From Iocasia fonsfrigidae (GTDB taxonomy: Bacteria > Bacillota > Halanaerobiia > Halanaerobiales > DTU029), in contig NZ_CP046640.1 of assembly GCF_017751145.1 (NCBI RefSeq), positions 2,398,137-2,462,136 on the forward strand: DNA of 64,000 nucleotides, in the 5' to 3' direction. A program made the translations under genes and the position numbers. Of this stretch, positions 46,395 through 61,490 are shown one piece after another. Below the pieces are notes generated by a model that made no database searches, was not told the DNA's origin, and worked only from the letters and a program-made list of their open reading frames with translations. The stretch's first letter is position 1, and every line of letters starts with the position of its first letter.

Positions 46395-46535
46395 ATAATT
46401 TAATACACAATCTGGTAGGTCAGGCGGGTTATCCCGCCCTTCCCCCATCAGAACTGTGCATGATAGTTTCCCATCACACAGCCCAAGCAGCCTGACCCAA
46501 CCTTCGGATTGACGGTAACAAATATTAAATTTGTT
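46395..46535 (-). mobile_element. Group II intron 3' remnant (domain V and VI)
   Basis: On the minus strand a domain-V-like hairpin (GGGCTGTGTGATGG, GGAAAC loop, CTATCATGCACAGTTC) is followed by GATGGGGGAAGGGCG and a domain-VI-like stem GGGCGGGATAACCCGCC ending TGACCTACC. An AT-rich 25-base palindrome (near 46514-46538) may be a domain IV stub. No reverse transcriptase remains. It lies at the tail of the cassette array beside the damaged last attC, and differs in sequence from the two other introns here. Confidence 0.6.
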
Positions 46536-46614
46536 ACCTAACCTTTCAGAATATATGGTCTGACTTTCCTACTTGACATTCCCTTAAGACCCTTGCGTGA
46601 ACATGTTGTTAGCT
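46536..46614 (-). repeat. Degraded attC site 11 (array tail)
   Basis: The R'' core AGCTAAC (46608-46614) exactly complements R' of attC10. A possible R' (GTTAGGT at 46536-46542) lies 79 bp away, but the arms between them do not pair. The intron remnant next to it probably destroyed the site. Confidence 0.5.
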
Positions 46615-46787
46615 GTTGGAATGATATAAGCAACTTAACTTTCATTAATTTTTTTCTAATTCACATAAATACTTAAGCATCTACTAATTAATTATTAAAC
46701 ACTTCAGATTATGCTCAATTAACGTAACGACAAACTGGAATTTATACTTTTCGACTTATCTTCAACTGAATACAATAAAAATTAAAA

Positions 46788-48413: not shown

Positions 48414-48611
48414 TCTTCTCTCCTATCTACTAAATATTGATATCGATAAATTCAAATTTGTCTGTTATAAATACTTTCATATCCTCTTCAATAAATATAT
48501 CAGAAAGTTCAATGTGGGGCATGCATTAATTAGAATTAAATTATATATACTCTTTACTTCTACAATTGATATTATACTATGATACTACCCTTTTACTAGA
48601 GGGGGGATGTC

Positions 48612-48723
48612 ATCTAACGTAACCGCATTTCCGAAGTCCAGCAACCCTTAGTTAGCTCTTAACTTGGGTTGCTGGATTTGGGTGCAGAGACGAAGGAACG
48701 GAACCGGAAATATATTGTTATCT
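48612..48723 (-). repeat. attC site 9 (112 bp)
   Basis: R'' AGATAAC (48717-48723), inner arms TTTCCGG/CCGGAAA-type, central stem AATCCAGCAACCC with GGGTTGCTGGA, R' GTTAGAT (48612-48618). Its R'' complements R' of attC8 although intron 1 now separates the two. Confidence 0.9.
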
Positions 48724-48741
48724 GAAGTCCAGCGGTTTTTA

Positions 48742-49188
48742 TTATTTTATCTCTTTAATAGCTTCTTCTCCCACTGGTGGTAAATCAACCCCTTGTTCTA
48801 TCAAAACTCCTAATCTTTCTATATTATTAAATAATTTTCTTTTCAATTCTTTATCCTCTTTATTCAGTTGATAAAAATCTGATACTTCAAGTGTAGCTTT
48901 TTTAAAAGTTTTTCTAGTTTTGGGATCTAAATATAAACAGTTATTATACCACCATTCTTGACATTTATATGCTACTTCATGAATGCTTTCATTATGGAGA
49001 TTAAAAAACATCTCACGCCAAAGACTATATGCCTCTTGATGAATTTCTAATCTTTTTTCTAATGCAGCAAGCCTAAACTGACTTGTCCGATCTGTTTTTG
49101 CAATAGTAAACTGTACTTTAATTGTTATTATAACACCAAGTATTGTTCCAGCAAATCCTATAATTGCTATCCACAAATTAACACTCAT
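48742..49188 (-). CDS. Small membrane protein, unknown (cassette 9, second gene)
   Basis: The 148-residue protein has one N-terminal membrane helix (LWIAIIGFAGTILGVIITIK) and a cytoplasmic helical domain (FRLAALEKRLEIHQEAYSLW, CQEWWYNNCLYLDPKTRKTF). I do not recognise the family. Single-span proteins of this shape are frequent integron cargo. The ATG follows AAGGAG. It is the promoter-distal gene of a two-gene cassette, directly before attC9. Confidence 0.65.
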   Translation of the reverse strand: MSVNLWIAIIGFAGTILGVIITIKVQFTIAKTDRTSQFRLAALEKRLEIHQEAYSLWREMFFNLHNESIHEVAYKCQEWWYNNCLYLDPKTRKTFKKATLEVSDFYQLNKEDKELKRKLFNNIERLGVLIEQGVDLPPVGEEAIKEIK

Positions 49189-49223
49189 TTAACCAACTCC
49201 TTATTAATATCAAAAAATTATTG

Positions 49224-49472
49224 CTATTTATTAAGTAATCTTTCCATCACTCTTTTCGACGCATAAATTTCTTGAATAAAAACATCAATTTTTTCATCTT
49301 TTGATGCATTAAATAGATATTCTCGTCCAAGTGTTTCAAGGTTACCTTGAATTATATCACCTGTTGCAATATGATAACTTCCTAATATTTCAATCACTGT
49401 ATAATCATTATTCTCAGTAAATATAGCAGCAAAACCTCTTCTTGAATTAATTTTTGTTATTTTACCTTCCAT
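49224..49472 (-). CDS. Small beta-rich protein, unknown (cassette 9, first gene)
   Basis: The 82-residue protein starts MEGKITKINSRRGFAAIFTE and continues NDYTVIEILGSYHIATGDII. The pattern of a glycine-rich first strand, then 'G.II.G', suggests a small OB-like fold. This is inference from sequence pattern only. GGAGG precedes the ATG. Only 25 bases separate the gene from the 3' end of group II intron 1, so the intron sits in its leader. Confidence 0.6.
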   Translation of the reverse strand: MEGKITKINSRRGFAAIFTENNDYTVIEILGSYHIATGDIIQGNLETLGREYLFNASKDEKIDVFIQEIYASKRVMERLLNK

Positions 49473-49497
49473 AATTAACCTCCAATTTGCTGGATTT

Positions 49498-51390
49498 GTC
49501 GAGTAGAAGGCACCTCACGATGCCGAACCCTCACAGATCCGGACGGGCCCAATTCGGGCATCCGGCTCCTCACTCCATCTCACATAAAATCAAAACTATC
49601 CATATATATTTACACATATTCTTGCTTTTGGTATGTGTTTATCAATTATATATTTCTTAAATTTCTCCCATATAAAGCTTTTCCTCTGACTTCTTCTATT
49701 CAACCATTTAAATAGTATTCTGATAATTGCCTGTCTAAAATTATCTATAGACTTACTATTATCTGTTATTCCATAATATTGATAATGTCCCCTCAACTTG
49801 GATTTAACCTTATCTACTATTTCGTTGGTCGTCAACATATTCCTCCTTAGCTTTATCCATCTTGTGAATTCTACTATCTTGGCGTTGATTTTTTTCTTCA
49901 TCGTCCTACGTTTTACCCTAAATCTACCTTTTCTGCTTGTACTACAGTAGTGAGTAAAACCTAGAAAGTCAAAGGTTTCCGGTTTGCCTCTACCTAATCG
50001 TCTGCTGTTACTGGCTGCAAATCTACCAAATTCTATTATCTTGGATTTATCTTCTGCCAGTGCTAAACCGAATTTTGCTAGTCTTTTCTTTAGTACATGA
50101 AAGAATATCTCTGCTGCTCTTTTGTATTGAAAGCAGCATACATAATCGTCAGCGTATCGCACTATCTCAGCTTCATCGTTGATACGATAATGTTTGCGAA
50201 TTATCCCCATAAACCATAGGTCTAGTACATAATGAAGATATATATTTGCCAGTAATGGAGATATTATTGCTCCCTGAGGTGTTCCCTGCTCAGTTACTGT
50301 GAGTTCCCCATCTTCTATTATTCCAGCTTTGAGAAACCTTACTATCAACCTTTTTATATTCGGATCTGCTATATTTACTCCTATAAATTTCATTAACCAT
50401 TCATGATTTACATTGTCAAAGAATCCCTTTATATCTGCATCTACCACATAGCTGATTTTCTGCTTTTCTATTACTATGTTTAGCTTCTTTAAGGCGTCAT
50501 GACAACTTAGTCTTGGTCGAAATCCATATGATATGTCCAGAAATATGGCTTCATATATCGGCTCCAGTATCTTCTTTAATCCCAGCTGCACTAGCTTGTC
50601 TTCATATGCTGGTATCCCTAGAGGTCTTACTTTTCCTTTTCCTTTACCTTTGGGTATATATCCTTCTTACTGGCTGGGGTCTATATGAGTGTGTTTTTAA
50701 TTTTTCCACAAGAGCACTTATATTCTCTTTTAAGTTCTCCTCATATTCTGCTTTAGTTACTTCATCTACACCTGTTGCCTTACCAGCTTCCAATTCTTGA
50801 TGACATAACAGCAGTAATTCCTCATTCAGTAAGTGATACAGTGAAGTGAATACTGTCTTTGGATTTTGTTTTGCTTTTATTGCTATCTTTGCTAATTTTG
50901 TTGACATTATTTATCCACCCCTGTGTGTGGTTAATGTGTCCTTAACAAATACGATTTCGTGCAGTTTTCCTTTTCTCCACCGGCATTACCCGGCTTCATC
51001 AATACTATGAAAACTGTCCGACTCCCTGCAACCTTCAGCATTCTTCCTTTTTATCAGTTGTTTGCTATACTTCTTTTCAGAAGAATTGCAGGGTCTCCTG
51101 AGTTATCATATAGTCATTGTATAACATGCCTGGCTCTTAGACCCCGGGGAGGTTTTAAGAAACTAGCCATTAATGTCTCATAAAATGTTGCTTTCCAGAT
51201 ATCTGAAACTGTCAGCCTTTCCCAACTGTACGATTTCGAGGCTCAATCACTTTCAGGCCTATTACCTAACTGTCTACACTTAAATCAATAAATCACTTTA
51301 TTGACTCCAAGACTCGCTACTGATGATTTGGCTTAATCTTATCAGGTAGGATTTCCACCTACTAAACTATATACCATTGCTCAGTCGTAC
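49498..51390 (-). mobile_element. Group II intron 1, adjoining attC8
   Basis: The intron begins GTACGACTGAGCAATGG at 51390 on the minus strand and ends at CTACTCGAC (49498). A domain V hairpin (GAGCCGGATGCCC, GGGCCCGTCCGGATC) and domain VI stem lie at about 49505-49570. The 5' exon ends with R' of attC8 plus one base. It encodes an RT/maturase (49596-50907) that is broken by a frameshift and has no endonuclease domain. Its 5' end is only loosely similar to intron 2. Confidence 0.8.
49596..50907 (-). pseudogene. Group II intron reverse transcriptase/maturase, frameshifted
   Basis: The N-terminal frame (50644-50907) encodes LATGVDEVTKAEY-type RT-0 sequence (GKATGVDEVTKAEYEENLKE) and stops after RRIYTQR. 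The second frame (from about 50650 down to 49596) gives KGKGKVRPLGIPAYEDKLVQ, YGFRPRLSCHDALKKLNIVI, QGTPQGAIISPLLANIYLHY and the catalytic RYADDYVCCFQ. It ends with maturase domain X (NRRSQRKSFIWEKFKKYI). Two bases missing from a TA run (AGGATATATACCC) explain the shift. The RT active site is otherwise intact. No HNH domain is present. Confidence 0.85.
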
Positions 51391-51391
51391 C

Positions 51392-51524
51392 AGATAACGT
51401 CCCTGAGCTTCACGACGTCCTCGATAATAATCATAATTTCATATAAAGCATAAAATCTTACATAAGTCATCCCAAACCCTCATCTATTCACCTCAACTAG
51501 GATGTCGTTAAGCTCATGTTATGT
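51392..51524 (-). repeat. attC site 8 (133 bp)
   Basis: R'' ACATAAC (51518-51524) and R' GTTATCT (51392-51398). The outer arms pair almost perfectly: GAGCTTAACGACATCCT against its near-complement ending GAGCTTCACGACGTCCT on the other strand. The central region is AT-rich. Intron 1 starts two bases beyond R'. Confidence 0.85.
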
Positions 51525-51571
51525 GATGTTTCTGGCGGGCTCTTGACCTTTAGCTCTTGACCTTTAATTCT

Positions 51572-51961
51572 TTAAACATCTACTTTATAATTTAAAACTA
51601 ATTCATCTCCTGTACTTCCTCTTATTCCCCAATTACATGCAGGCGTTTCAAAAATTGTTATCTCAATATCTTTAGGAGATATCTCTAATTCTTTTTCTAT
51701 TTTCTCAAATAATAGTTTTATCAATTTCTTCTTAGTTTCTTTCTTCCTGCCTTCAAATATACTTATTTCAATTATCGTATAATTCCCACTTCTACTCGAT
51801 GGAAAATAAAAATCTTCCTCTTTCATCGAAAAAAATCTATGAAACCTTTTATCTTCAGGATATTCAAATGCCTCAACTACACATGAATGAATTACATCTG
51901 ATAAATCCTTTTTAATTGGATTTAAATATTTCTCTAAACCATATATCTTAATTTGTCCCAT
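51572..51961 (-). CDS. Tautomerase-like protein (cassette 8, second gene)
   Basis: The 129-residue protein has a beta-alpha layout with GQIKIYGLEKYLNPIKKDLS near the start and NYTIIEISIFEGRKKETKKK, then IEKELEISPKDIEITIFETP. This matches the tautomerase (MIF/4-OT superfamily) double-repeat proteins such as MSAD-like ones. The N-terminal proline after Met is absent (Met-Gly), so tautomerase chemistry is doubtful. GAGGAGG precedes the ATG, which lies 3 bases after the methyltransferase stop. Downstream is a short direct repeat of CTCTTGACCTTTA (51540-51570). Confidence 0.7.
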   Translation of the reverse strand: MGQIKIYGLEKYLNPIKKDLSDVIHSCVVEAFEYPEDKRFHRFFSMKEEDFYFPSSRSGNYTIIEISIFEGRKKETKKKLIKLLFEKIEKELEISPKDIEITIFETPACNWGIRGSTGDELVLNYKVDV

Positions 51962-51964
51962 AAT

Positions 51965-52666
51965 TTATTCCTCCTCTGATAAAATAATTTTCAAAACTTG
52001 ATTTCCACCTTTTACAAATTCATAATCTACATCTTCCTTTTTAAAACTAAATTCTTTAAAATCTTTATCTTCCATAATTCTCTGAACAAAACCTGATTTT
52101 TCACTCTTTAAATTCACTAATGGAAATATCCTAATCTCTTTTTCAGTAATTCTTATTAATTCCTCTAATGTTCTTTTATGAAAATCATAATCTAAATGCT
52201 CATCATACATAAATAGAAAATGAGATACCAAAGAGATACTAAACTCCTTATCTCTAAAATTACTACTTGGATACTCAACAACTTTATAGTTAACACCTTT
52301 ATTTTCTGAAAAGTCTTTTATAAAGGTCTTATATGCTGTTTCTCTATGTTTTTTCAAATGGTTTATATCATTGAAAAAATCCCATCTATAAAGTTCCTTA
52401 ATTCCCTTCAACTTATGCATAACTTCTACTAAGTCCTTGGAACACTTATTCTCAATTTTATCAGAATTAAATTGATATATTCTATCACTACTTATCACAT
52501 CATATCCATCTTCCCTAGCCATCGCTCCAAATGAAGATACACCAGAAGCAACATCTAAAATTCTTTCTTCTACTAAATTTAACTCTTCTAATGCAAACAT
52601 CTTATAATATTCCTTAAAAGTCCTCCCAATTAAAACTATCTCTTCTAATTCTAATCCTCTACTCAT
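51965..52666 (-). CDS. SAM-dependent methyltransferase-like protein (cassette 8, first gene)
   Basis: The 233-residue protein has ERILDVASGVSSFGAMARED near residue 35, a variant of motif I (DxASGxSSFG), followed by YDVISSDRIYQF. A later SLVSHFLFMYDEHLDYDFHK block matches the motif IV-V region. The substrate is unknown. TAGGAGGAG lies upstream of the ATG. It forms a two-gene cassette with the tautomerase-like gene and lies 64 bases after attC7. Confidence 0.7.
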   Translation of the reverse strand: MSRGLELEEIVLIGRTFKEYYKMFALEELNLVEERILDVASGVSSFGAMAREDGYDVISSDRIYQFNSDKIENKCSKDLVEVMHKLKGIKELYRWDFFNDINHLKKHRETAYKTFIKDFSENKGVNYKVVEYPSSNFRDKEFSISLVSHFLFMYDEHLDYDFHKRTLEELIRITEKEIRIFPLVNLKSEKSGFVQRIMEDKDFKEFSFKKEDVDYEFVKGGNQVLKIILSEEE

Positions 52667-52730
52667 CTAATCTCTTCTCTCCTCCTATGGTTTCAAAATT
52701 ATTTTATAGCCAGAAATGTTACATAACGTA

Positions 52731-52831
52731 TCCGTATTGCCGAAGTTTATCAACCTTAGTCAGACCTGACTTGGGTTGACAAATTTGGGTGAAATGACGG
52801 TAGGAATGGAACCGGCAATATTTTGTTAGGC
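52731..52831 (-). repeat. attC site 7 (101 bp)
   Basis: R'' GCCTAAC (52825-52831), inner arm TTGCCGG with CGGCAA, central stem TTTGTCAACC with GGTTGATAAA, R' GTTATGT (52731-52737). R'' complements R' of attC6. Confidence 0.9.
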
Positions 52832-52846
52832 GATCGTGGCTCAAAT

Positions 52847-53560
52847 CTACCCAACATCTTTATTTGTATTTATTTCTTTAATTATCTCTGGAATTACTTC
52901 TAACGAATTAATAATAAAACCGTTCTCAACATACTCAATTTTTTTATCTGCTTTTCTATCAATTAACGCACCATATAGTCCAGAACTAATAGCTCCTATA
53001 AAATCTTTTTTATAATTATCCCCAATATATAAAGCTTCATAAGAATTAATATCCAAATCATTTAAGCATTTTTTGTATATCCTCTTATCAGGTTTAGATA
53101 TACCTAAATCACCAGAAATAACTACTGTATTAAAATAATCTATTATGCCTTTATTTTTTAATTTCTGTCTTTGTTGATCTGAGTCTCCATCAGATATAAT
53201 TCCAAGCAAATATTCATTTAGTAAGTCTAAACATACATCAGAAAATAAAGTCCAGTTATTCTCATAAGCGGATAAATAATAATTAAAATATTCTTTTGCT
53301 TCTGCACTAGATATATTTTCGCCAAACCTTGAAAAAACACCTTTTAATCTCAATATTCTTTGTTCTTGAAATGTAATCTCCTTTTTTAAATATTGTTCCA
53401 CATACTTATCATGCTCTTCTTTCCATATTTCTTGAAATTCACTTAGTGTGATTCCCTTTTCAGCTATAAACTCACCATAAAAATCCTTACTTCCCTGTTT
53501 AATTGCTAGTGTATGACTAATTAAGGTATCATCAATGTCAAAGATAACTGCTTTTATCAT
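52847..53560 (-). CDS. HAD family hydrolase (cassette 7)
   Basis: The 237-residue protein has HAD motif I KAVIFDIDDTLISHTLAIK at the N-terminus, motif II in LLGIISDGDSDQQRQKLKNK, motif III lysine in DLGISKPDKRIYKKCLNDL, and motif IV ALYIGDNYKKDFIGAISSGL. A helical cap lies at residues 18-90. These are phosphatases of sugars, nucleotides or other small phosphates; the substrate is unknown. The ATG follows AAAGGAGAG. It is not closely alike in sequence to the other HAD cassette (59197-59850). Confidence 0.88.
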   Translation of the reverse strand: MIKAVIFDIDDTLISHTLAIKQGSKDFYGEFIAEKGITLSEFQEIWKEEHDKYVEQYLKKEITFQEQRILRLKGVFSRFGENISSAEAKEYFNYYLSAYENNWTLFSDVCLDLLNEYLLGIISDGDSDQQRQKLKNKGIIDYFNTVVISGDLGISKPDKRIYKKCLNDLDINSYEALYIGDNYKKDFIGAISSGLYGALIDRKADKKIEYVENGFIINSLEVIPEIIKEINTNKDVG

Positions 53561-53637
53561 TTTTTTATCTCTCCTTTACCCGCGTGAGCCATGTCGCCTA
53601 ACGTCCCGCAGGTTTACGAAGTTGATGAGTCTTAGCG

Positions 53638-55516
53638 GTCAAGTAAGCGGGGCTTTACAACCCCAACTCCTCACAGAACCGTACGTGCCCTATTTAGGCA
53701 TACGGCTCTTCACTCGATTATTCACCTAACATAACTAGCACCAGCACCTAATCTATATAAATTTACTTTTATTCTTGGCTTGACAATAGGATATTTCTCC
53801 AAGAATATTTCGAACTTCTCCCAGTCAAAGCTTTTCTTTTGACTGCGTCTGTTTAACCATTTATAAACTAGCTTTTGAACCTCATCATACAGGCTATCAA
53901 TACTTTTGCTGTTATCTGATACTGCATAATAGTTGTATGTTCCTGTTAGTTTTCTGTTTAACTTCCTCATAAGTTCTTTTACTGGAAGAGTTCTATTATA
54001 TTTTAGCCAGGATTTACATCTCATTATACTACGATGATATCGCTTATTACTTGTCTTTCTCTTTAGTCGTTTGATTCCATCCTTACATTTACCAATATAA
54101 TGGGTAAATCCAAGAAAATCAAATGTGTCATTGTCATCATCAGCAGATACATTTACTATCTTAGTTTTCTCTTCTGATAACTCTAAACCGAATTTGGATA
54201 TTCTTTCTTTCATTGCTTTATAGAAGTATTTTACATCTTCTTTATACTGTAGGCAAAATATTATATCATCTGCGTATCTCACCATATAAGCTTTACCCTT
54301 TAACTCTTTACGCATTGTTTTATTAAACCATAGGTCAACAACATGATGTAGATATAAATTCGCCATAATTGGAGAACAGACTCCACCTTGCGGTGTTCCT
54401 TGTGGAGTGTCATATTTTATTCCTGCCTCCATGACTCCAGCCCGAAGAAGTCTCGATATGAGTCGTTGTATATTAGGATCTTTAATTCGATGGTCAATGA
54501 ATTTCATCATCCACCCGTGGTCTACATTATCAAAGAATCCTTTAATATCTGTATCAACTACATAGTTAATATCATCTCTGTTAACTATTCTTCCTAATAT
54601 TCTCAAGGCATCATGACAGTTTCTTCCTGGACGAAAACCAAATGAACATTCAAGAAAGTCTTCTTCATATATCGCATTTAGAATCTTTGATAGTGCCTTT
54701 TGAACTAGTTTGTCTTCGTATGCTGGAATCCCTAGCGGTCTCTTCTTCCCATTTTCTTTTGGAATATATACCCTTTTCGCAGGTAATGGCCTATATGCCC
54801 ATCTTTTCATTCTAGCTATTAAGCTCTTAACATTCCCTGGAAGATTCTTTCCATACTCCGCTTTTGTTACTTCATCTACTCCAGCTGCTTTGTTTCCAGC
54901 TAGTTCATGATGACATTTGACTATCAATTCATAATTAATTAGATGTATTAGTGATGTAAATCTTTCATTAGGTCTATTTCTAGCTACTTCAGCTATTCTT
55001 GCAAGTTTCGTTTCCACATTTTCACCTATCTCTGTGTATAGAATATGTTTCCCTTTTAAGATTAATCTTGTGTAATCGCCTTCCCATCCACAGGCATTAC
55101 TCTGCTTCCTCGGTACTATGCGATTATCCGACTCCCTGTAATATTAGATGTCCTTACTTTGTTATCGCTTGGTTACATCCTATCTCTCTGCGTAGAAATT
55201 ACAGGGCCTCCCAAGTTAACAATATCATATCTATGTATAGCATGCGGAGGTCTCCGACCCCGGGGTGTTATTGTATTCTCGCTTATCGAATACTATAATG
55301 TTGCCTTCTGCTCAGTCGACAGCATCGGCCTTTCCCAATCTCCAAGATTTCGAGGCTCAATCCCTTCAGCTAGATGCTTACCGCCTACTACCTAACTGTT
55401 TACGCTTAACATCTATGGTTACCCAATAAATGTCCAAAACTCGCTATGAGTGGTTTGCTAAACCTTCCTCAGTAGGAATCCCACCTACTATATGATATGC
55501 TCTTTTCTTGGCGCAC
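53638..55516 (-). mobile_element. Group II intron 2, inside attC6
   Basis: On the minus strand it starts GTGCGCCAAGAAAAGAGC and ends CTTACTTGAC. Domain V (GAGCCGTATGCC, GGCACGTACGGTTC) and domain VI (GTTGGGGTTGTAAAGCCCC) lie at about 53645-53715. The 431-residue RT/maturase is intact and has no endonuclease domain. Group IIC-attC introns are a known class that targets attC sites, and this insertion fits that behaviour. Exact 5' end is inferred from the GTGCG start. Confidence 0.85.
53722..55017 (-). CDS. Group II intron reverse transcriptase/maturase
   Basis: The 431-residue protein has RT domains in order: GNKAAGVDEVTKAEYGKNL, RPLGIPAYEDKLVQKALSKI, CSFGFRPGRNCHDALRILGR, VVDTDIKGFFDNVDHGWMM (catalytic Asp), GTPQGGVCSPIMANLYLHHV, and YMVRYADDIIFCLQYKED with the YADD motif near residue 248. 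Maturase domain X ends with NRRSQKKSFDWEKF. No HNH endonuclease follows, so insertion would use single-stranded or replicating DNA, as for IIC-type introns. The start is a GTG after AGGTG. Confidence 0.95.
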   Translation of the reverse strand: METKLARIAEVARNRPNERFTSLIHLINYELIVKCHHELAGNKAAGVDEVTKAEYGKNLPGNVKSLIARMKRWAYRPLPAKRVYIPKENGKKRPLGIPAYEDKLVQKALSKILNAIYEEDFLECSFGFRPGRNCHDALRILGRIVNRDDINYVVDTDIKGFFDNVDHGWMMKFIDHRIKDPNIQRLISRLLRAGVMEAGIKYDTPQGTPQGGVCSPIMANLYLHHVVDLWFNKTMRKELKGKAYMVRYADDIIFCLQYKEDVKYFYKAMKERISKFGLELSEEKTKIVNVSADDDNDTFDFLGFTHYIGKCKDGIKRLKRKTSNKRYHRSIMRCKSWLKYNRTLPVKELMRKLNRKLTGTYNYYAVSDNSKSIDSLYDEVQKLVYKWLNRRSQKKSFDWEKFEIFLEKYPIVKPRIKVNLYRLGAGASYVR

Positions 55517-55611
55517 CGACTGCGCTTGGCGAATCAATTTGGGCGAAACGATAGTGGAGCCGTAAACCTTGCTGTTATATGAAGTTTGGGCTCTTCACAT
55601 ATATATTATTT

Positions 55612-56313
55612 TTAGTTAATATCCCCGAAGTTTTCTCTTCCTAAATCTATTATTTTATGATAATTATTCCATGCTTCCGTAGCAGTATTATTTGCTTCAC
55701 GTATTATTTTACTATATAAAACTGGATCATGTGACTTTAATGATCTATGTATTCTTAACATTTCAGTATTTCCAACAGTACTAGCATATTCTCCCAATAA
55801 TGAAGTTAATTCTGTTAATTTTTTGTTAAGTTTCTTTATTAATACTTCAATTTCTTTATTTTTAAATTTAAATTCAGGATTATCTTTTTCAGACAAAAAA
55901 TTATAAATCATTTCTAAATTTTCCCTAGAAAACTTATTGCCTAAATCTTTATCTTTTAAAAAATTTCTTACATTATTATAAGGTAAAACATCCTTTAGTC
56001 GTTTAAAAACAGCCTCATCTAATTTTTTATTATTATTTTTATTTTCTATTTCACATAGTTGTTTCTTATAATTATTTAATATAGTATCATATCTAAAAAA
56101 TACCTTTATTAAAATCCAGATAAAGATAAATACAATGATTAATAACATTAGTAATGAAATTGACATGGATATTTCTCTGCTTAGTAGATCCTTCAAGAAA
56201 CCTATTTTATTTTCACTATAATATTCAGGAGTATAAACAATTACAGCAAATACAGCCATTATAAAATAAATTAACTTTTCAAGCCATTTTAAAACTTTCC
56301 TTATTACTTCCAT
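55612..56313 (-). CDS. Two-helix membrane protein, unknown (cassette 6)
   Basis: The 233-residue protein has two membrane helices within the first 75 residues (YFIMAVFAVIVYT; ISLLMLLIIVFIFIWILIKV). A charged helical cytoplasmic domain follows (KKQLCEIENKNNNKKLDEAV; FKNKEIEVLIKKLNKKLTEL). I know no family. GAGGTG precedes the ATG. It lies between attC5 and the split attC6, so loss of attC6 function would lock it to the next cassette. Confidence 0.65.
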   Translation of the reverse strand: MEVIRKVLKWLEKLIYFIMAVFAVIVYTPEYYSENKIGFLKDLLSREISMSISLLMLLIIVFIFIWILIKVFFRYDTILNNYKKQLCEIENKNNNKKLDEAVFKRLKDVLPYNNVRNFLKDKDLGNKFSRENLEMIYNFLSEKDNPEFKFKNKEIEVLIKKLNKKLTELTSLLGEYASTVGNTEMLRIHRSLKSHDPVLYSKIIREANNTATEAWNNYHKIIDLGRENFGDIN

Positions 56314-56362
56314 AATTCACCTCATTCTTTAATTTATTATAAACTCACGTAGCCCAAATTTC

Positions 56363-56468
56363 ATATAACGTCCCGAGGGTTTAAGAAGTTCATGAACCTT
56401 AGATAGCTCATATCTTAGGTTCATGAATTTGGGTGCAGCGAAGCGGAACCTTAAACCCTCTGTTATGC
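56363..56468 (-). repeat. attC site 5 (106 bp)
   Basis: R'' GCATAAC (56462-56468), arms AGAGGGTTTAAGG with the CCGAGGGTTTAAG half-site, central stem AAATTCATGAACC with GGTTCATGAACTT, R' GTTATAT (56363-56369). Confidence 0.9.
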
Positions 56469-56520
56469 GATGGATGACTGGTCTATTTTCTTAATTCTTA
56501 CTCTGCAAATTATAGTAATT

Positions 56521-57156
56521 TTATATACAAATATTTTTTCTTTCTAATGCTTGTCTGATTTTAAAAATAAACAAATCATATTTATCATTTTCATTATTTT
56601 TTTCTAGAATATCAATTAATTCTACTAATGATTGTTTTACTTCTTTAATTTTTTCTTCATTTGAATTATCAATACAACTAATAATAAAATCAACAGCAAA
56701 ACTTACCCTCTTAAGTGAATTTGCCTCTATCCCCTGTTTTGCAGACTTTATATAACCTATTAAAGCTGATTCATAATTTTTACTGGTATATAAATTATTT
56801 GCATTTACAAAATTTATTATAGAGTTAGTGTTTAATATTTGATTATCAAACATTTCTCTAAATTGACTTGTTTTTATATCTACTTTACTTTCAATATCAT
56901 CAATTAATGACTGTTTAGCTTTTTCGATTTCTTCTTTGACAAACAGCTTTATTTCTCTTTCTTCGATTTTAAAAAGACGTTTTTGATACCAACCAATGAA
57001 TATAGGAACAAGTATAGTAAGTATTAAAAAAAACCCACTAAGAATAACAATTAATTTATTCCACGAAGAATTATAAAAATTGTCAACTTTATTTATTATT
57101 TCAAGAATATCTGTAGCACTTTTATTTATTGTTGTTGCAAGTGCTATTAATATCAT
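56521..57156 (-). CDS. Membrane-anchored coiled-coil protein, unknown (cassette 5)
   Basis: The 211-residue protein has one membrane helix near residues 33-55 (IVILSGFFLILTILVPIFIG-type segment) and a coiled coil (RLFKIEEREIKLFVKEEIEK). A helical C-terminal domain follows (YESALIGYIKSAKQGIEANS). The family is unknown. AAAGGAGG precedes the ATG. It has the same general shape as cassette 6 but no visible sequence likeness. Confidence 0.65.
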   Translation of the reverse strand: MILIALATTINKSATDILEIINKVDNFYNSSWNKLIVILSGFFLILTILVPIFIGWYQKRLFKIEEREIKLFVKEEIEKAKQSLIDDIESKVDIKTSQFREMFDNQILNTNSIINFVNANNLYTSKNYESALIGYIKSAKQGIEANSLKRVSFAVDFIISCIDNSNEEKIKEVKQSLVELIDILEKNNENDKYDLFIFKIRQALERKNICI

Positions 57157-57209
57157 TATATTACCTCCTTTTCTACTACAATTATAATTAATAGCTTAAG
57201 TCATCTTTG

Positions 57210-57314
57210 GCATAACGTCTCCGTATTGCCGAAGTTCATGAGTTCTAGCCAGACTTGGCTTGAATTCATGAATTTGGGTGCAGCGACAGCGGAACCGGCA
57301 ATATTTTGTTATGT
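57210..57314 (-). repeat. attC site 4 (105 bp)
   Basis: R'' ACATAAC (57308-57314), inner arm TTGCCGG with CGGCAA, central stem AAATTCATGAATTC with GAACTCATGAACTT, R' GTTATGC (57210-57216). Confidence 0.92.
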
Positions 57315-57333
57315 GAAGTCACTCATTATCTTG

Positions 57334-57981
57334 TTATTTAACACTATCTTTCATAATATACTTAATAGCAATGATTAATAATGGCATATACATACTTGCC
57401 AGTAATAATCGTTGCCAAAGTCCACTTAAACCCACTATAGTATTTTGATACGATTCTTTTTCTGAAACTACAAATAAAACAAATAAAACAAGACTAATTA
57501 AGAAAAAAATAAGTGATATTATTGCAGTTGTATTATCATTACTCTTATACAAAAGAAAACATACTATTAACGGAATAAATGTCAAAGCTATAAATCCTAA
57601 TCCTGACCCAATTCCATGAACTTTAGAAGCAAGAGTTTCTAATTCTTTACTTACATTTACACTAAATATACCAGATAAAATACCAGCACCTATTGCAAAA
57701 ATCAATAGTAAAATAAATCCTATCATTGCATAACTTTTAGACACTGAAGAAAAAACAATATAAAAATTTATAGCAGAATAAATAAATAATAATCCTAAAA
57801 TTACTAACCAAATATTATAAATTATTGAAACAGGACTTTGAGGACTACCCAAAACACTCATAACTTGTTTAGTATGGCTATATTTAGGATAATAGAACGA
57901 CAATACATAAGCAACTATAAAATCTCCTAAAATTGCTATTATTAAAATAGCCCAACTTAACTTAGAATTCCATAAATTCAT
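57334..57981 (-). CDS. DUF998 family membrane protein (cassette 4)
   Basis: The 215-residue protein has six membrane helices and the DUF998 layout: FYYPKYSHTKQVMSVLGSPQ after helix 1, then SVNVSKELETLASKVHGIGS between helices 3 and 4, and SGLWQRLLLASMYMPLLIIA at the end. DUF998 proteins are six-helix proteins of unknown function. TTGGAGG precedes the ATG. Multi-span proteins are unusual but not unknown as cassette cargo. Confidence 0.82.
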   Translation of the reverse strand: MNLWNSKLSWAILIIAILGDFIVAYVLSFYYPKYSHTKQVMSVLGSPQSPVSIIYNIWLVILGLLFIYSAINFYIVFSSVSKSYAMIGFILLLIFAIGAGILSGIFSVNVSKELETLASKVHGIGSGLGFIALTFIPLIVCFLLYKSNDNTTAIISLIFFLISLVLFVLFVVSEKESYQNTIVGLSGLWQRLLLASMYMPLLIIAIKYIMKDSVK

Positions 57982-58019
57982 AAATAAACCTCCAATATAA
58001 ATATTATACTTACGATTTC

Positions 58020-58130
58020 ACATAACGTTTTTGTATTGCCGAAGTTCAAGAACCTTAGTCAGACCTGACTTAGGTTCTTGAATTTGGGTGTAATGACGTT
58101 AGGAATGGAACTGGCAATACTGTGTTAAGC
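58020..58130 (-). repeat. attC site 3 (111 bp)
   Basis: R'' GCTTAAC (58124-58130), inner arm TTGCCAG with CGGCAA, central stem AAATTCAAGAACC with GGTTCTTGAACTT, R' GTTATGT (58020-58026). Confidence 0.92.
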
Positions 58131-58144
58131 GAAGTTTGACGGTT

Positions 58145-59050
58145 TTATGTATTTGATTTATGATCATTATCCCCAATTAAAGGACTATTCAATACCCTGA
58201 ATTTTTTTTCATTATTCCAAACATTAATCAATTTTTCAAAGTTTTTATCAGGTTCTAACATAAGTTTTGCCAATTTATCTATTTCTTTAAATTCTTTTTC
58301 GGTCAATTGTTCAAATCTACCTGAAATATAACTTGGTTGGAAATTATAAGATATTTCATTATTCATCAAACTATGAAAATCATAAAATATTGCTCTAATT
58401 GCAGCTTCTAACCCATGTTGACCAGCAGCATAAACAATTTTATTACTATCTTTTCTTCCTGTTCTAATATCAAGCCATGTTTTTGCAGCCCAATCAAATT
58501 CATCATCAGGAATATCAAACTGACTAAAATCTAAATCATCAAAAAAACCATCAGCATCAATATTAATCCACCTATTTTCTTTTATACTCCAATATTGATT
58601 TATCCAGTGATCAGCACTAATATCAGGTAATAGATATGGTGCAAAGCCTGACCTGCATCGTGTTGGAACACCTTTTGATTTAAGAATTGAAGTCATTAAC
58701 ACAGATACATACCGGCATGTAACTACAATTTTGTCTTCCACAGCCCTATCTTTTTTAAATCCTCTTTCATCTAATCGTAAAAGTTCACCAACCATTGCTA
58801 AAGATGTTAAAAGAACATCATCATCACATCTTAATCTATGCCAAGGATATCTATCCATATCCCCGTATTTTTTATCAGAATTTGCACTAGTATTTCCATT
58901 TTTTAATGTTACTCTATGAATTACTTGGTGAGTTATTAAATTACCTAGTTCAGAAATGTCATCTGTTAATGATTTTAGAAAATCTACATAGCAACCTGGA
59001 TTAGTATAAGTGCTAAATTGTAAATAATAATTTAATATTTTTTCTTTCAT
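58145..59050 (-). CDS. Transglutaminase-like protein (cassette 3)
   Basis: The 301-residue protein has the papain-like triad of transglutaminase-like proteins in order: Cys in VVTCRYVSVLMTSILKSKGV near residue 110, His in ISADHWINQYWSIKENRW near 145, and Asp in WINIDADGFFDDLDF near 160. No signal peptide is seen, so it is probably cytoplasmic. The substrate is unknown; proteases, peptide N-glycanases and amidases share the fold. GGAGG precedes the ATG. Confidence 0.82.
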   Translation of the reverse strand: MKEKILNYYLQFSTYTNPGCYVDFLKSLTDDISELGNLITHQVIHRVTLKNGNTSANSDKKYGDMDRYPWHRLRCDDDVLLTSLAMVGELLRLDERGFKKDRAVEDKIVVTCRYVSVLMTSILKSKGVPTRCRSGFAPYLLPDISADHWINQYWSIKENRWINIDADGFFDDLDFSQFDIPDDEFDWAAKTWLDIRTGRKDSNKIVYAAGQHGLEAAIRAIFYDFHSLMNNEISYNFQPSYISGRFEQLTEKEFKEIDKLAKLMLEPDKNFEKLINVWNNEKKFRVLNSPLIGDNDHKSNT

Positions 59051-59072
59051 AATCTACCTCCAGTCAAATTTT

Positions 59073-59184
59073 GCTTAACGTAACCGTATTTCCGAAGTCC
59101 AGCAACCCTTAGATATCTCCTATCTTGGATTGCTGGATTTGGGTGCAGTGACGAAGGAACGAAACCGGAAATATTTTGTTAGGT
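59073..59184 (-). repeat. attC site 2 (112 bp)
   Basis: R'' ACCTAAC (59178-59184), inner arm TTTCCGG with CGGAAA, central stem AAATCCAGCAATCC with GGGTTGCTGGACTT, R' GTTAAGC (59073-59079). It resembles attC9 closely. Confidence 0.92.
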
Positions 59185-59196
59185 GAAGTTCTGACT

Positions 59197-59850
59197 TTAA
59201 CCCACATAATTATCTAGTTTTACAATATTATCCACTATTTTTTTAACACCATTTTTTTCAAATTTACTCTTTGTTGTAGTACCTGTTGTTACCGCAACAA
59301 AATCAACCCCTGCATTTTTAGCTGTCTTTAAATCAGTCATACTATCTCCAACATAAAGAATATCCTCTTTATTCTTCTTTAATTTTTTTATTGCTGATAA
59401 TAAACCATCGGGACTAGGTTTGTTTTCTTTAACATCTTCTCCACCAATAATAATATCAAAATATCCTATCAATCCGTCTCTTTTTAGTATATTTTCAATC
59501 CTATATCTAAATTTTGTTGAAACAATTCCTAACATAAATCCTTTATCTTTAAGTTTTTCTATCTCATTTTTTATAGGCTCAAAAAGAAATGTCATTTCAG
59601 CCATTACCTCATCTGCTCGCTTAACAAATAGCTCACTAAACAGATAAAAATTATCATGAGAATGATATTTTTTATCTGTTAAACTTATAAAAGTATCTTT
59701 TAATGATAATCCAATTGTATTACTGGCATCTTCAAATGGTACACATGAAAGTTTCATATTATCTAGGGCATAATTAATACACTCTACTGTACCTTTTGAA
59801 GAATCAGCTAAAGTATAATCAAAATCAAATATTATTGCATCATATCTCAT
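59197..59850 (-). CDS. HAD family phosphatase, Gph-like (cassette 2)
   Basis: The 217-residue protein has motif I DAIIFDFDYTLADSSKGTVE, a helical cap (residues 18-85), motif II FMLGIVSTKFRYRIENIL, motif III EDVKENKPSPDGLLSAIKKL and motif IV DILYVGDSMTDLKTAKNAGV. This is close to phosphoglycolate-phosphatase/PpaX-type enzymes, which clean up damaged or stray phosphometabolites. The ATG follows GATAGGTG. It is the second cassette from the head. Confidence 0.9.
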   Translation of the reverse strand: MRYDAIIFDFDYTLADSSKGTVECINYALDNMKLSCVPFEDASNTIGLSLKDTFISLTDKKYHSHDNFYLFSELFVKRADEVMAEMTFLFEPIKNEIEKLKDKGFMLGIVSTKFRYRIENILKRDGLIGYFDIIIGGEDVKENKPSPDGLLSAIKKLKKNKEDILYVGDSMTDLKTAKNAGVDFVAVTTGTTTKSKFEKNGVKKIVDNIVKLDNYVG

Positions 59851-59912
59851 ATCTTTTCACCTATCATTTGTTTATTTTTTTACATGCTTTTAAGCTATCG
59901 TGTCAGAATTTC

Positions 59913-60025
59913 ACCTAACGTATCCGTATTGCCGAAGTCCATCAGACCTTAGATAGCTCCTATCTTGGTCTGATGAATTTGGACGAAATGACGGCAGGAA
60001 TGGAGTCGGCAATATATTGTTATGC
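59913..60025 (-). repeat. attC site 1 (113 bp)
   Basis: R'' GCATAAC (60019-60025), inner arm TTGCCG with CGGCAA, central stem AAATTCATCAGACC with GGTCTGATGGACTT, R' GTTAGGT (59913-59919). R'' complements the GTTATGC junction at the array head. Confidence 0.93.
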
Positions 60026-60044
60026 GATCGTTCCTGTCATCTTT

Positions 60045-61069: not shown

Positions 61070-61490
61070 TCACTGATTTTTTAGTAGTTGGTCTAATGGA
61101 CTTTTAATCTTTTTATATTGCGTTTTACTTACATAGGTATATATTTCTGTAGTTTTAGTAACTTTTATGACCTAAAAACTCTTGGATATACCTGATATCA
61201 GTACCGTTTTCTAAAAGCTGTGTTGCAAATGAGTGGCGTAATGAATGAACAGATACATCTTTTTTTATATTTGCTTTACTAACTGCTTTTTTAAAAAGTT
61301 TTTGAACAGACCTTACGCTTAAATGTTTTTCTCCCCGTCCTGGAAATAACCATTCATAAATTTTATATTTTGCTCTATATGCTCGAAGATACAAAAGAGC
61401 AGTATCAGAAATAATTGTATATCTATCTTTTTTACCTTTACCTTGAGGAACTCCTTCCTTTAATTGCAAATTTTTTATTTTCCTTTTATT
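61070..61490 (-). pseudogene. Tyrosine recombinase remnant at the array head
   Basis: The frame 61155-61469 encodes GKGKKDRYTIISDTALLYL (beta-hairpin Lys), SVHSLRHSFATQLLENGTDI (HxxR) and YIQEFLGHKSY (His). It stops before the catalytic tyrosine. One extra base near 61171 hides the rest, KTTEIYTYVSKTQYKKIKS and LDQLLKNQ, which ends at 61070. The N-terminal core-binding domain and first arginine are gone. The IntI-specific insertion of classical integrases is not seen, so it may be XerC/D-like. It is read in the same direction as the cassettes, with its 3' end facing attI. Confidence 0.75.

What the first reader, a model, noticed from the sequence alone, without database searches (positions are those of the whole stretch)
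53596..55580. Group II intron with intact maturase inserted inside attC6
The two attC halves are 1.9 kb apart with matching outer arms, and the intron fills the gap. The maturase lacks an endonuclease domain, as in IIC-type introns. Group IIC-attC introns that recognise attC stems are known from Proteobacteria; here the same strategy appears in another host type. The insertion should block cassette excision at this site unless the intron splices or leaves at DNA level.
Basis: partly seen in the sequence, partly recalled or inferred. Interest (0 to 1): 0.72.

Follow-up and report, generated by a model that had tools for sequence, protein, structure and literature searches.

The report
IIB-type intron in attC loop
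A self-copying RNA element (a group II intron) sits exactly in the tip of an integron recombination-site hairpin in a salt-loving Firmicute; it is not the known integron-hunting intron type but a different class that finds the tip by a six-base match, and relatives of it hit three other positions of the same kind of site.

Summary
Window 55516-53638 (minus) is a complete 1,879-nt group II intron with an intact endonuclease-less RT/maturase. It splits an attC (55580-55517 / 53637-53596) in its apical loop. The genome is Iocasia fonsfrigidae NS-1 by exact length. It holds 11 near-full-length copies (0-10 differences among the nine intact): 8 split attCs, 3 sit inside conserved genes. All 8 split attCs rejoin into full attCs, and the three genes rejoin into open frames.

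It is not IIC. The IEP tree puts it outside class C and with S. meliloti/Azotobacter-type class D/E-like IEPs, and its RNA matches the same Rfam family as those. EBS1-IBS1 pairing is 6 bp (CGACUG/CAGTCG, the hairpin tetraloop plus its closing pair). Unlike IIC-attC introns it lies in the top strand, in cassette orientation. A second family in the window targets TATCTG at the attC 3' edge. Relatives target TTAGCG (5' arm) and ACGTTA (the core). EBS1 complements IBS1 perfectly in all four attC-targeting lineages. Every perfect apical target in the genome is occupied.

Splicing and mobility are inferred, not shown. The adjoining integrase lacks the IntI-specific insertion.

The parts
53638..55516 (-). 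complete group II intron, family A (1,879 nt); IIB-like, class D/E-type
   Evidence: RF02005 and RF00029 matches; boundaries from 11 copies; class from tree and RNA family
53722..55017 (-). intron-encoded RT/maturase (431 aa, YADD present, RVT_1 + GIIM, no endonuclease domain)
55517..55580 (-). 5' half of the split attC (R'' and L'' arms plus the 5' side of the apical hairpin)
   Evidence: attC HMM
53596..53637 (-). 3' half of the split attC (3' side of the apical hairpin, L' and R' arms, core ACGTTA)
   Evidence: attC HMM
55517..55522 (-). IBS1 CAGTCG: tetraloop AGTC plus closing C-G pair of the attC apical hairpin
   Evidence: comparison of 11 insertion sites; DNA fold
55313..55318 (-). EBS1 CGACUG, perfect complement of IBS1, in the RF02005 EBS1 column
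55342..55347 (-). candidate EBS2 UCUUGG, complementary to IBS2 CCAAG(C/G)
   Evidence: among the best-scoring windows across 11 targets; weaker than EBS1
53638..53710 (-). domains V and VI; 3' end ACUUGAC fits the AXX(X)XRAY consensus
   Evidence: RF00029 48 bits; fold z -4.48
49498..51390 (-). second intron, family B, at the 3' edge of another attC (GTTATCTG|AAAT); maturase frame broken
   Evidence: EBS1 CAGAUA / IBS1 TATCTG
51391..51524 (-). complete attC of a second subtype, immediately 5' of intron B
48611..60026 (-). cassette array with seven further intact attC sites (48611, 52720, 56362, 57209, 58019, 59072, 59912)
   Evidence: covariance model R1, 103-116 bits each
61155..61469 (-). 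fragment of an integrase like P0001, at the head of the array, same direction
   Evidence: 85% identity to P0001 residues 235-344

Best explanation
The element is a mobile, endonuclease-less group II intron of the IIB-like (class D/E-type) lineage that has specialised on integron attC sites. Its RNA finds the target by pairing EBS1 CGACUG with IBS1 CAGTCG, the tetraloop and closing base pair of the attC apical hairpin, helped by EBS2 UCUUGG against CCAAG. It reverse-splices into the top strand of attC, which here is the template of lagging-strand synthesis, and is then copied by its reverse transcriptase, probably primed by the nascent strand. Because it lies in the same direction as the cassette genes it can be spliced out of cassette transcripts, so it costs the array little. 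Shown: the anatomy, precise insertion, target pairing, copy number, target saturation and strand. Inferred: splicing, reverse splicing, priming, and low cost.
For: Eleven copies share one target, GCAG[TGC]CG|: 8 in attC apical loops and 3 in genes. Removing the intron rejoins all 8 attCs and all 3 gene frames (940, 438 and 443 codons open across the junction). EBS1, in one fixed RF02005 column, complements the last 6 nt of the 5' exon perfectly in A, B, G054, G057, G048, G021, G036, G001, G017, G026, the G038 attC copy and a Nitrospinia contig. A plain search finds the same relation in about 35 further loci. None of 44 attCs without a family A insertion has CAGTCG in its apical loop, while 6 of 8 occupied ones do, and AAGSGCAGTCGC has no hit in the genome. 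Nine copies have an open 431-codon frame. The nine undamaged copies differ by 0-10 of 1,879 nt, and two attC copies are identical to two gene copies. With dnaA at 397 and the GC-skew sign, all 11 copies lie in the lagging-strand template. IEP tree and RNA family agree on the class.
Against: No RNA data, so splicing is not shown. Eight of the 11 copies sit in arrays of fixed orientation, so the strand bias has few independent points (the three gene copies plus the arrays). Two of the 8 occupied attCs and one gene site have a one-base mismatch to EBS1. One relative (L135) matches only 5 of 6, and one G038 copy sits at AAGTTA outside an attC. The EBS2 call is weaker. The exact class (D, E or a neighbour) is not settled, because no verified RmInt1 reference was in the tree.
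Confidence: 0.86

Rival explanations
1. It is a member of the known group IIC-attC introns, transferred to Halanaerobiales.
For: Endonuclease-less IEP, attC target, multiple copies.
Against: IEP lies outside the class C clade; RF02005 RNA shared with S. meliloti and Azotobacter introns and not with four other Halanaerobia introns; 6-bp EBS1-IBS1; opposite strand, orientation and position to the TTGT/T bottom-strand site.
Confidence: 0.04
2. The intron recognises only a short sequence, GCAGTCG|C, and attC enrichment merely reflects that this sequence is common in these attC loops; hairpin structure and integron biology play no part.
For: Three copies lie in protein genes, at least one without an obvious strong hairpin; EBS1/EBS2 pairing explains the sites.
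Against: 8 of 11 copies are in attC. Three other lineages (B; G054/G057; G017/G026/G038) have EBS1 matched to other attC positions, so attC itself is a recurrent target.
Confidence: 0.3
3. The copies spread mainly as passengers of cassette shuffling by the integrase rather than by retrotransposition.
For: The attC type and cassettes recur in several places and the array carries an integrase.
Against: Each occupied attC has different flanks, gene copies lie far from any array, and removal restores exact target sites.
Confidence: 0.06
4. The intron has been kept because it helps build cassettes, as proposed for IIC-attC introns (joining a gene to an attC by recombination between intron copies).
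For: Identical copies sit in attC and in genes; a G038 relative sits both at an attC and at a terminator-like hairpin.
Against: Family A gene copies interrupt reading frames rather than follow terminators; no recombinant cassette was found.
Confidence: 0.08

Closest known systems
Group IIC-attC introns (Proteobacteria; UHB.F1 in a soda lake)
   Same: Endonuclease-less mobile introns that use attC sites as targets and occur in cassette arrays
   Different: Class C/IIC; bottom strand at TTGT/T in R''; opposite orientation to cassettes; 3-4 bp EBS1-IBS1. Here IIB-like, top strand, apical loop, cassette orientation, 6 bp
IIB introns in halophile integrons (UHB.I2, CL1/IIB1; H.ha.F1/F2, class E), PMC7923331
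   Same: IIB introns in cassette arrays; UHB.I2 lies after an attC in cassette orientation
   Different: Single or truncated copies, different IEP class as reported (CL1, E), no targeting rule shown; none described inside an attC hairpin loop
RmInt1/RmInt2 of Sinorhizobium meliloti (class D, IIB3), PMC5894124
   Same: Endonuclease-less IEP, EBS1/EBS2 target pairing, preference for the lagging-strand template, targets inside other mobile elements (insertion sequences, their inverted repeats)
   Different: Targets are insertion sequences, not attC; IEP about 41% identical to the S. meliloti pSymA intron used here, whose identity as RmInt1/2 was not verified

Membership tests
group II intron | domains I-VI with ORF in domain IV, GUGYG 5' end and AY 3' end | tested here: met
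   RF02005 155.6 bits, RF00029 48 bits; GTGCG...GAC ends fixed by 11 copies; D5/D6 fold
group IIC / IIC-attC | IEP of class C | tested here: not met
   GsI-IIC and E. rectale IIC form a separate 100/99 clade
group IIC / IIC-attC | short EBS1-IBS1 (3-4 bp) with an upstream hairpin in place of IBS2 | tested here: not met
   6/6 EBS1-IBS1 and a candidate EBS2-IBS2
group IIC / IIC-attC | insertion in attC bottom strand at TTGT/T, opposite to cassettes | tested here: not met
   top strand, apical loop, cassette orientation at 8/8 attC copies
class D / IIB3 (RmInt1-like) | IEP in the class D clade, no endonuclease domain | tested here: inconclusive
   inside a 95/99 clade with S. meliloti, Pseudomonas and Azotobacter IEPs; no endonuclease; no verified class D or E reference in the tree
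class D / IIB3 (RmInt1-like) | IIB-type RNA with EBS1 and EBS2 | tested here: met
   RF02005 shared with those introns at 187-195 bits; EBS1 clear, EBS2 probable
integron attC site | R''/R' and L''/L' arms, GTT core, hairpin, in an array of cassettes | tested here: met
   49 matches in the genome, joined site 71 bits, hairpin
integron | integrase of the IntI family with its specific extra domain | tested here: not met
   P0001 scores 203 against a cut-off of 265 and lacks the insertion present in IntI1 and IntI2
integron | recombination of attC by the neighbouring integrase | not testable with these tools
   needs an excision or integration assay

The most novel reading that the evidence does not exclude
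A lineage of IIB-like, endonuclease-less introns ('IIB-attC') has specialised on integron recombination sites and repeatedly re-targeted to different positions of attC (apical loop, 5' arm, core, 3' edge). It lives in a Halanaerobia integron-like system whose integrase lacks the IntI-specific domain.
Probability: 0.6. Interest if true: 0.75.

Novelty: new variant of a known kind. Interest (0 to 1): 0.64.

Why it matters
Introns aimed at integron sites were thought to be almost only IIC, on one strand, at one position. Here a different class does it on the other strand, at several positions, and in the direction that allows splicing. Matched EBS1/target pairs give a ready set of natural re-targeting events for testing how a retroelement chooses folded single-stranded DNA. 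The array also shows that the intron burden and saturation of an integron can be read directly from sequence.

Tried and rejected
IIC assignment: rejected by the IEP tree and RNA family. An intron 5' end at the earlier TTCGCC, where some copies still match: rejected, because the gene frames rejoin at GCAGTCG|GTGCG and all copies share the IBS1. A regular-expression attempt at collecting EBS1 motifs failed and was replaced. No close strain was held to look for the same attC without the intron; paralogous empty attCs in the same genome were used instead. The Rfam D5 match at 46410-46486 belongs to another intron remnant, not to this one.

Full report
WHAT IS THERE. The window is part of a single 3,926,493-bp chromosome, the exact length given for Iocasia fonsfrigidae NS-1, Halanaerobiales (PMC8652127). 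At 55516-53638, minus strand, lies a complete group II intron of 1,879 nt. Rfam RF02005 matches D1-D4 with 155.6 bits and RF00029 matches D5-D6 with 48 bits. D5 and D6 fold well (z -4.48). The 431-aa RT/maturase (53722-55017) has RVT_1 and GIIM domains and no endonuclease domain.

INSERTION SITE. The genome holds 11 near-full-length copies at 97-100% identity; nine have an uninterrupted maturase frame. The nine undamaged copies differ from each other by 0-10 nt, and two attC copies are identical to two gene copies. All share the 5' exon end GCAG[TGC]CG. Eight split an attC. The other three interrupt an SMC-like ATPase, a LarA-like protein and a sugar-acid-kinase-like protein; these names come from reading the sequence and were not checked against a family library. 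With the intron left out, each gene reads open across the junction (940, 438 and 443 codons). Joined attC halves score 69-93 bits on an HMM made from intron-less attCs; single halves score 19-49. In the window attC the insertion lies one base pair past the tetraloop, so IBS1 (CAGTCG) is the loop AGTC plus its closing pair.

TARGETING RULE. In the RF02005 alignment EBS1 occupies one fixed loop. Family A has CGACUG against CAGTCG. Family B has CAGAUA against TATCTG. G054 and G057 have CGCUAA against TTAGCG. G048, G021, G036 and G001 also match their own sites 6/6. G017, G026 and the G038 attC copy have UAACGU against ACGTTA, the attC core itself, directly after a full attC. A Nitrospinia contig has UAACGA against TCGTTA. 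A plain search finds the same relation in about 35 further loci. Exceptions: L135 matches 5 of 6, and the second G038 copy sits at AAGTTA beside a terminator-like hairpin. Candidate EBS2 pairings exist for A (UCUUGG/CCAAG) and B (CGUAC/GTACG, read from the sequence).

SATURATION. Model R1 finds 49 attC matches in the genome. Of 44 inspected without a family A insertion, none has CAGTCG in the apical loop, whereas 6 of 8 occupied ones do. The pattern AAGSGCAGTCGC is absent from the genome. All four model-found attCs ending GTTATC[TC]G carry intron B; one further attC with that ending, split by intron A at 1838659, is free of B.

CLASS. In a 34-sequence ML tree, A groups with IEPs of G048 (Acetohalobium arabaticum by its exact contig length), G021 and Halanaerobium (100/100), then with family B and a Peribacillus IEP (97/97), and lies in a 95/99 clade with S. 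meliloti, Pseudomonas, Azotobacter and Klebsiella IEPs. GsI-IIC and the E. rectale IIC IEP form their own clade outside. RF02005 matches the S. meliloti, Klebsiella and Azotobacter introns with 187-195 bits and does not match four other Halanaerobia introns whose IEPs branch elsewhere. IIC is therefore rejected; class D or a neighbour (class E) is likely but not settled.

STRAND. dnaA lies at 397, and GC skew is positive up to 1.86 Mb and negative from 2.40 Mb in the stretches fetched. All 11 A copies and 6 B copies read with the leading strand, that is, they lie in the lagging-strand template. This agrees with the priming route described for endonuclease-less RmInt1 (PMC5894124), but the arrays have fixed orientation, so few points are independent.

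MECHANISM. Most likely: reverse splicing into single-stranded attC top strand at the fork, guided by EBS1 and EBS2, then reverse transcription. Splicing from cassette transcripts would keep the cost low. Whether the insertion blocks cassette excision is open: the arms of attC remain but are 1.9 kb apart at the loop. None of these steps was shown here; the sequence shows only the precise outcome.

KNOWN OR NEW. IIC-attC introns enter the bottom strand at TTGT/T, opposite to the cassettes. IIB introns in integrons have been reported from hypersaline settings, one of them after an attC in cassette orientation (PMC7923331). Insertion inside the attC hairpin loop, matched EBS1/attC pairs at four positions, and saturation were not found in the open-access library searched; subscription papers were not searchable.

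HOST SYSTEM. The integrase P0001 (362 aa) scores 203 bits on the IntI model (cut-off 265) and 223 on the XerA model (cut-off 220). It lacks the IntI-specific insertion, as do five relatives. In six loci the integrase or its remnant heads an attC array in the same direction. IntegronFinder 2.0 reported one complete integron in Firmicutes, in Limnochorda (PMC9024848).

Noticed in passing
L019:3126-4214 (genome 1543126-1544211); window 61155-61469: Integrase P0001 heads the attC array in cassette direction, is XerA-like with an N-terminal extension and lacks the IntI-specific insertion; the same layout occurs in G003, G030, G041 and G058. It may be an integron-like system without a true IntI.
   Followed up: partly
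window 46410-46486 and 46596-46615: Domain V match of another intron remnant shortly after the left half of an attC (CAGCTAACAACATGTTCACG): possibly a third intron-hit attC in this window.
   Followed up: no
genome 1637936-1640412: Two family A introns in tandem in one attC; the second lacks most of the maturase gene.
   Followed up: partly
L140, L141, L216: Intron lineage whose EBS1 (UAACGU) matches the attC core ACGTTA and that sits directly after complete attCs in three Halanaerobia genomes; 5' ends GAACG or GTACG rather than GTGYG.
   Followed up: partly
L208: A copy of that lineage outside attC, just after a terminator-like hairpin, as the cassette-formation model for IIC-attC introns would need.
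   Followed up: no
genome 1595896-1596705: A second tyrosine recombinase beside a gene resembling an IS91-type transposase, with a further fragment of it in the array region.
   Followed up: no
window 49596-50907: Family B maturase in the window is broken by a stop; intact copies exist elsewhere in the genome.
   Followed up: partly
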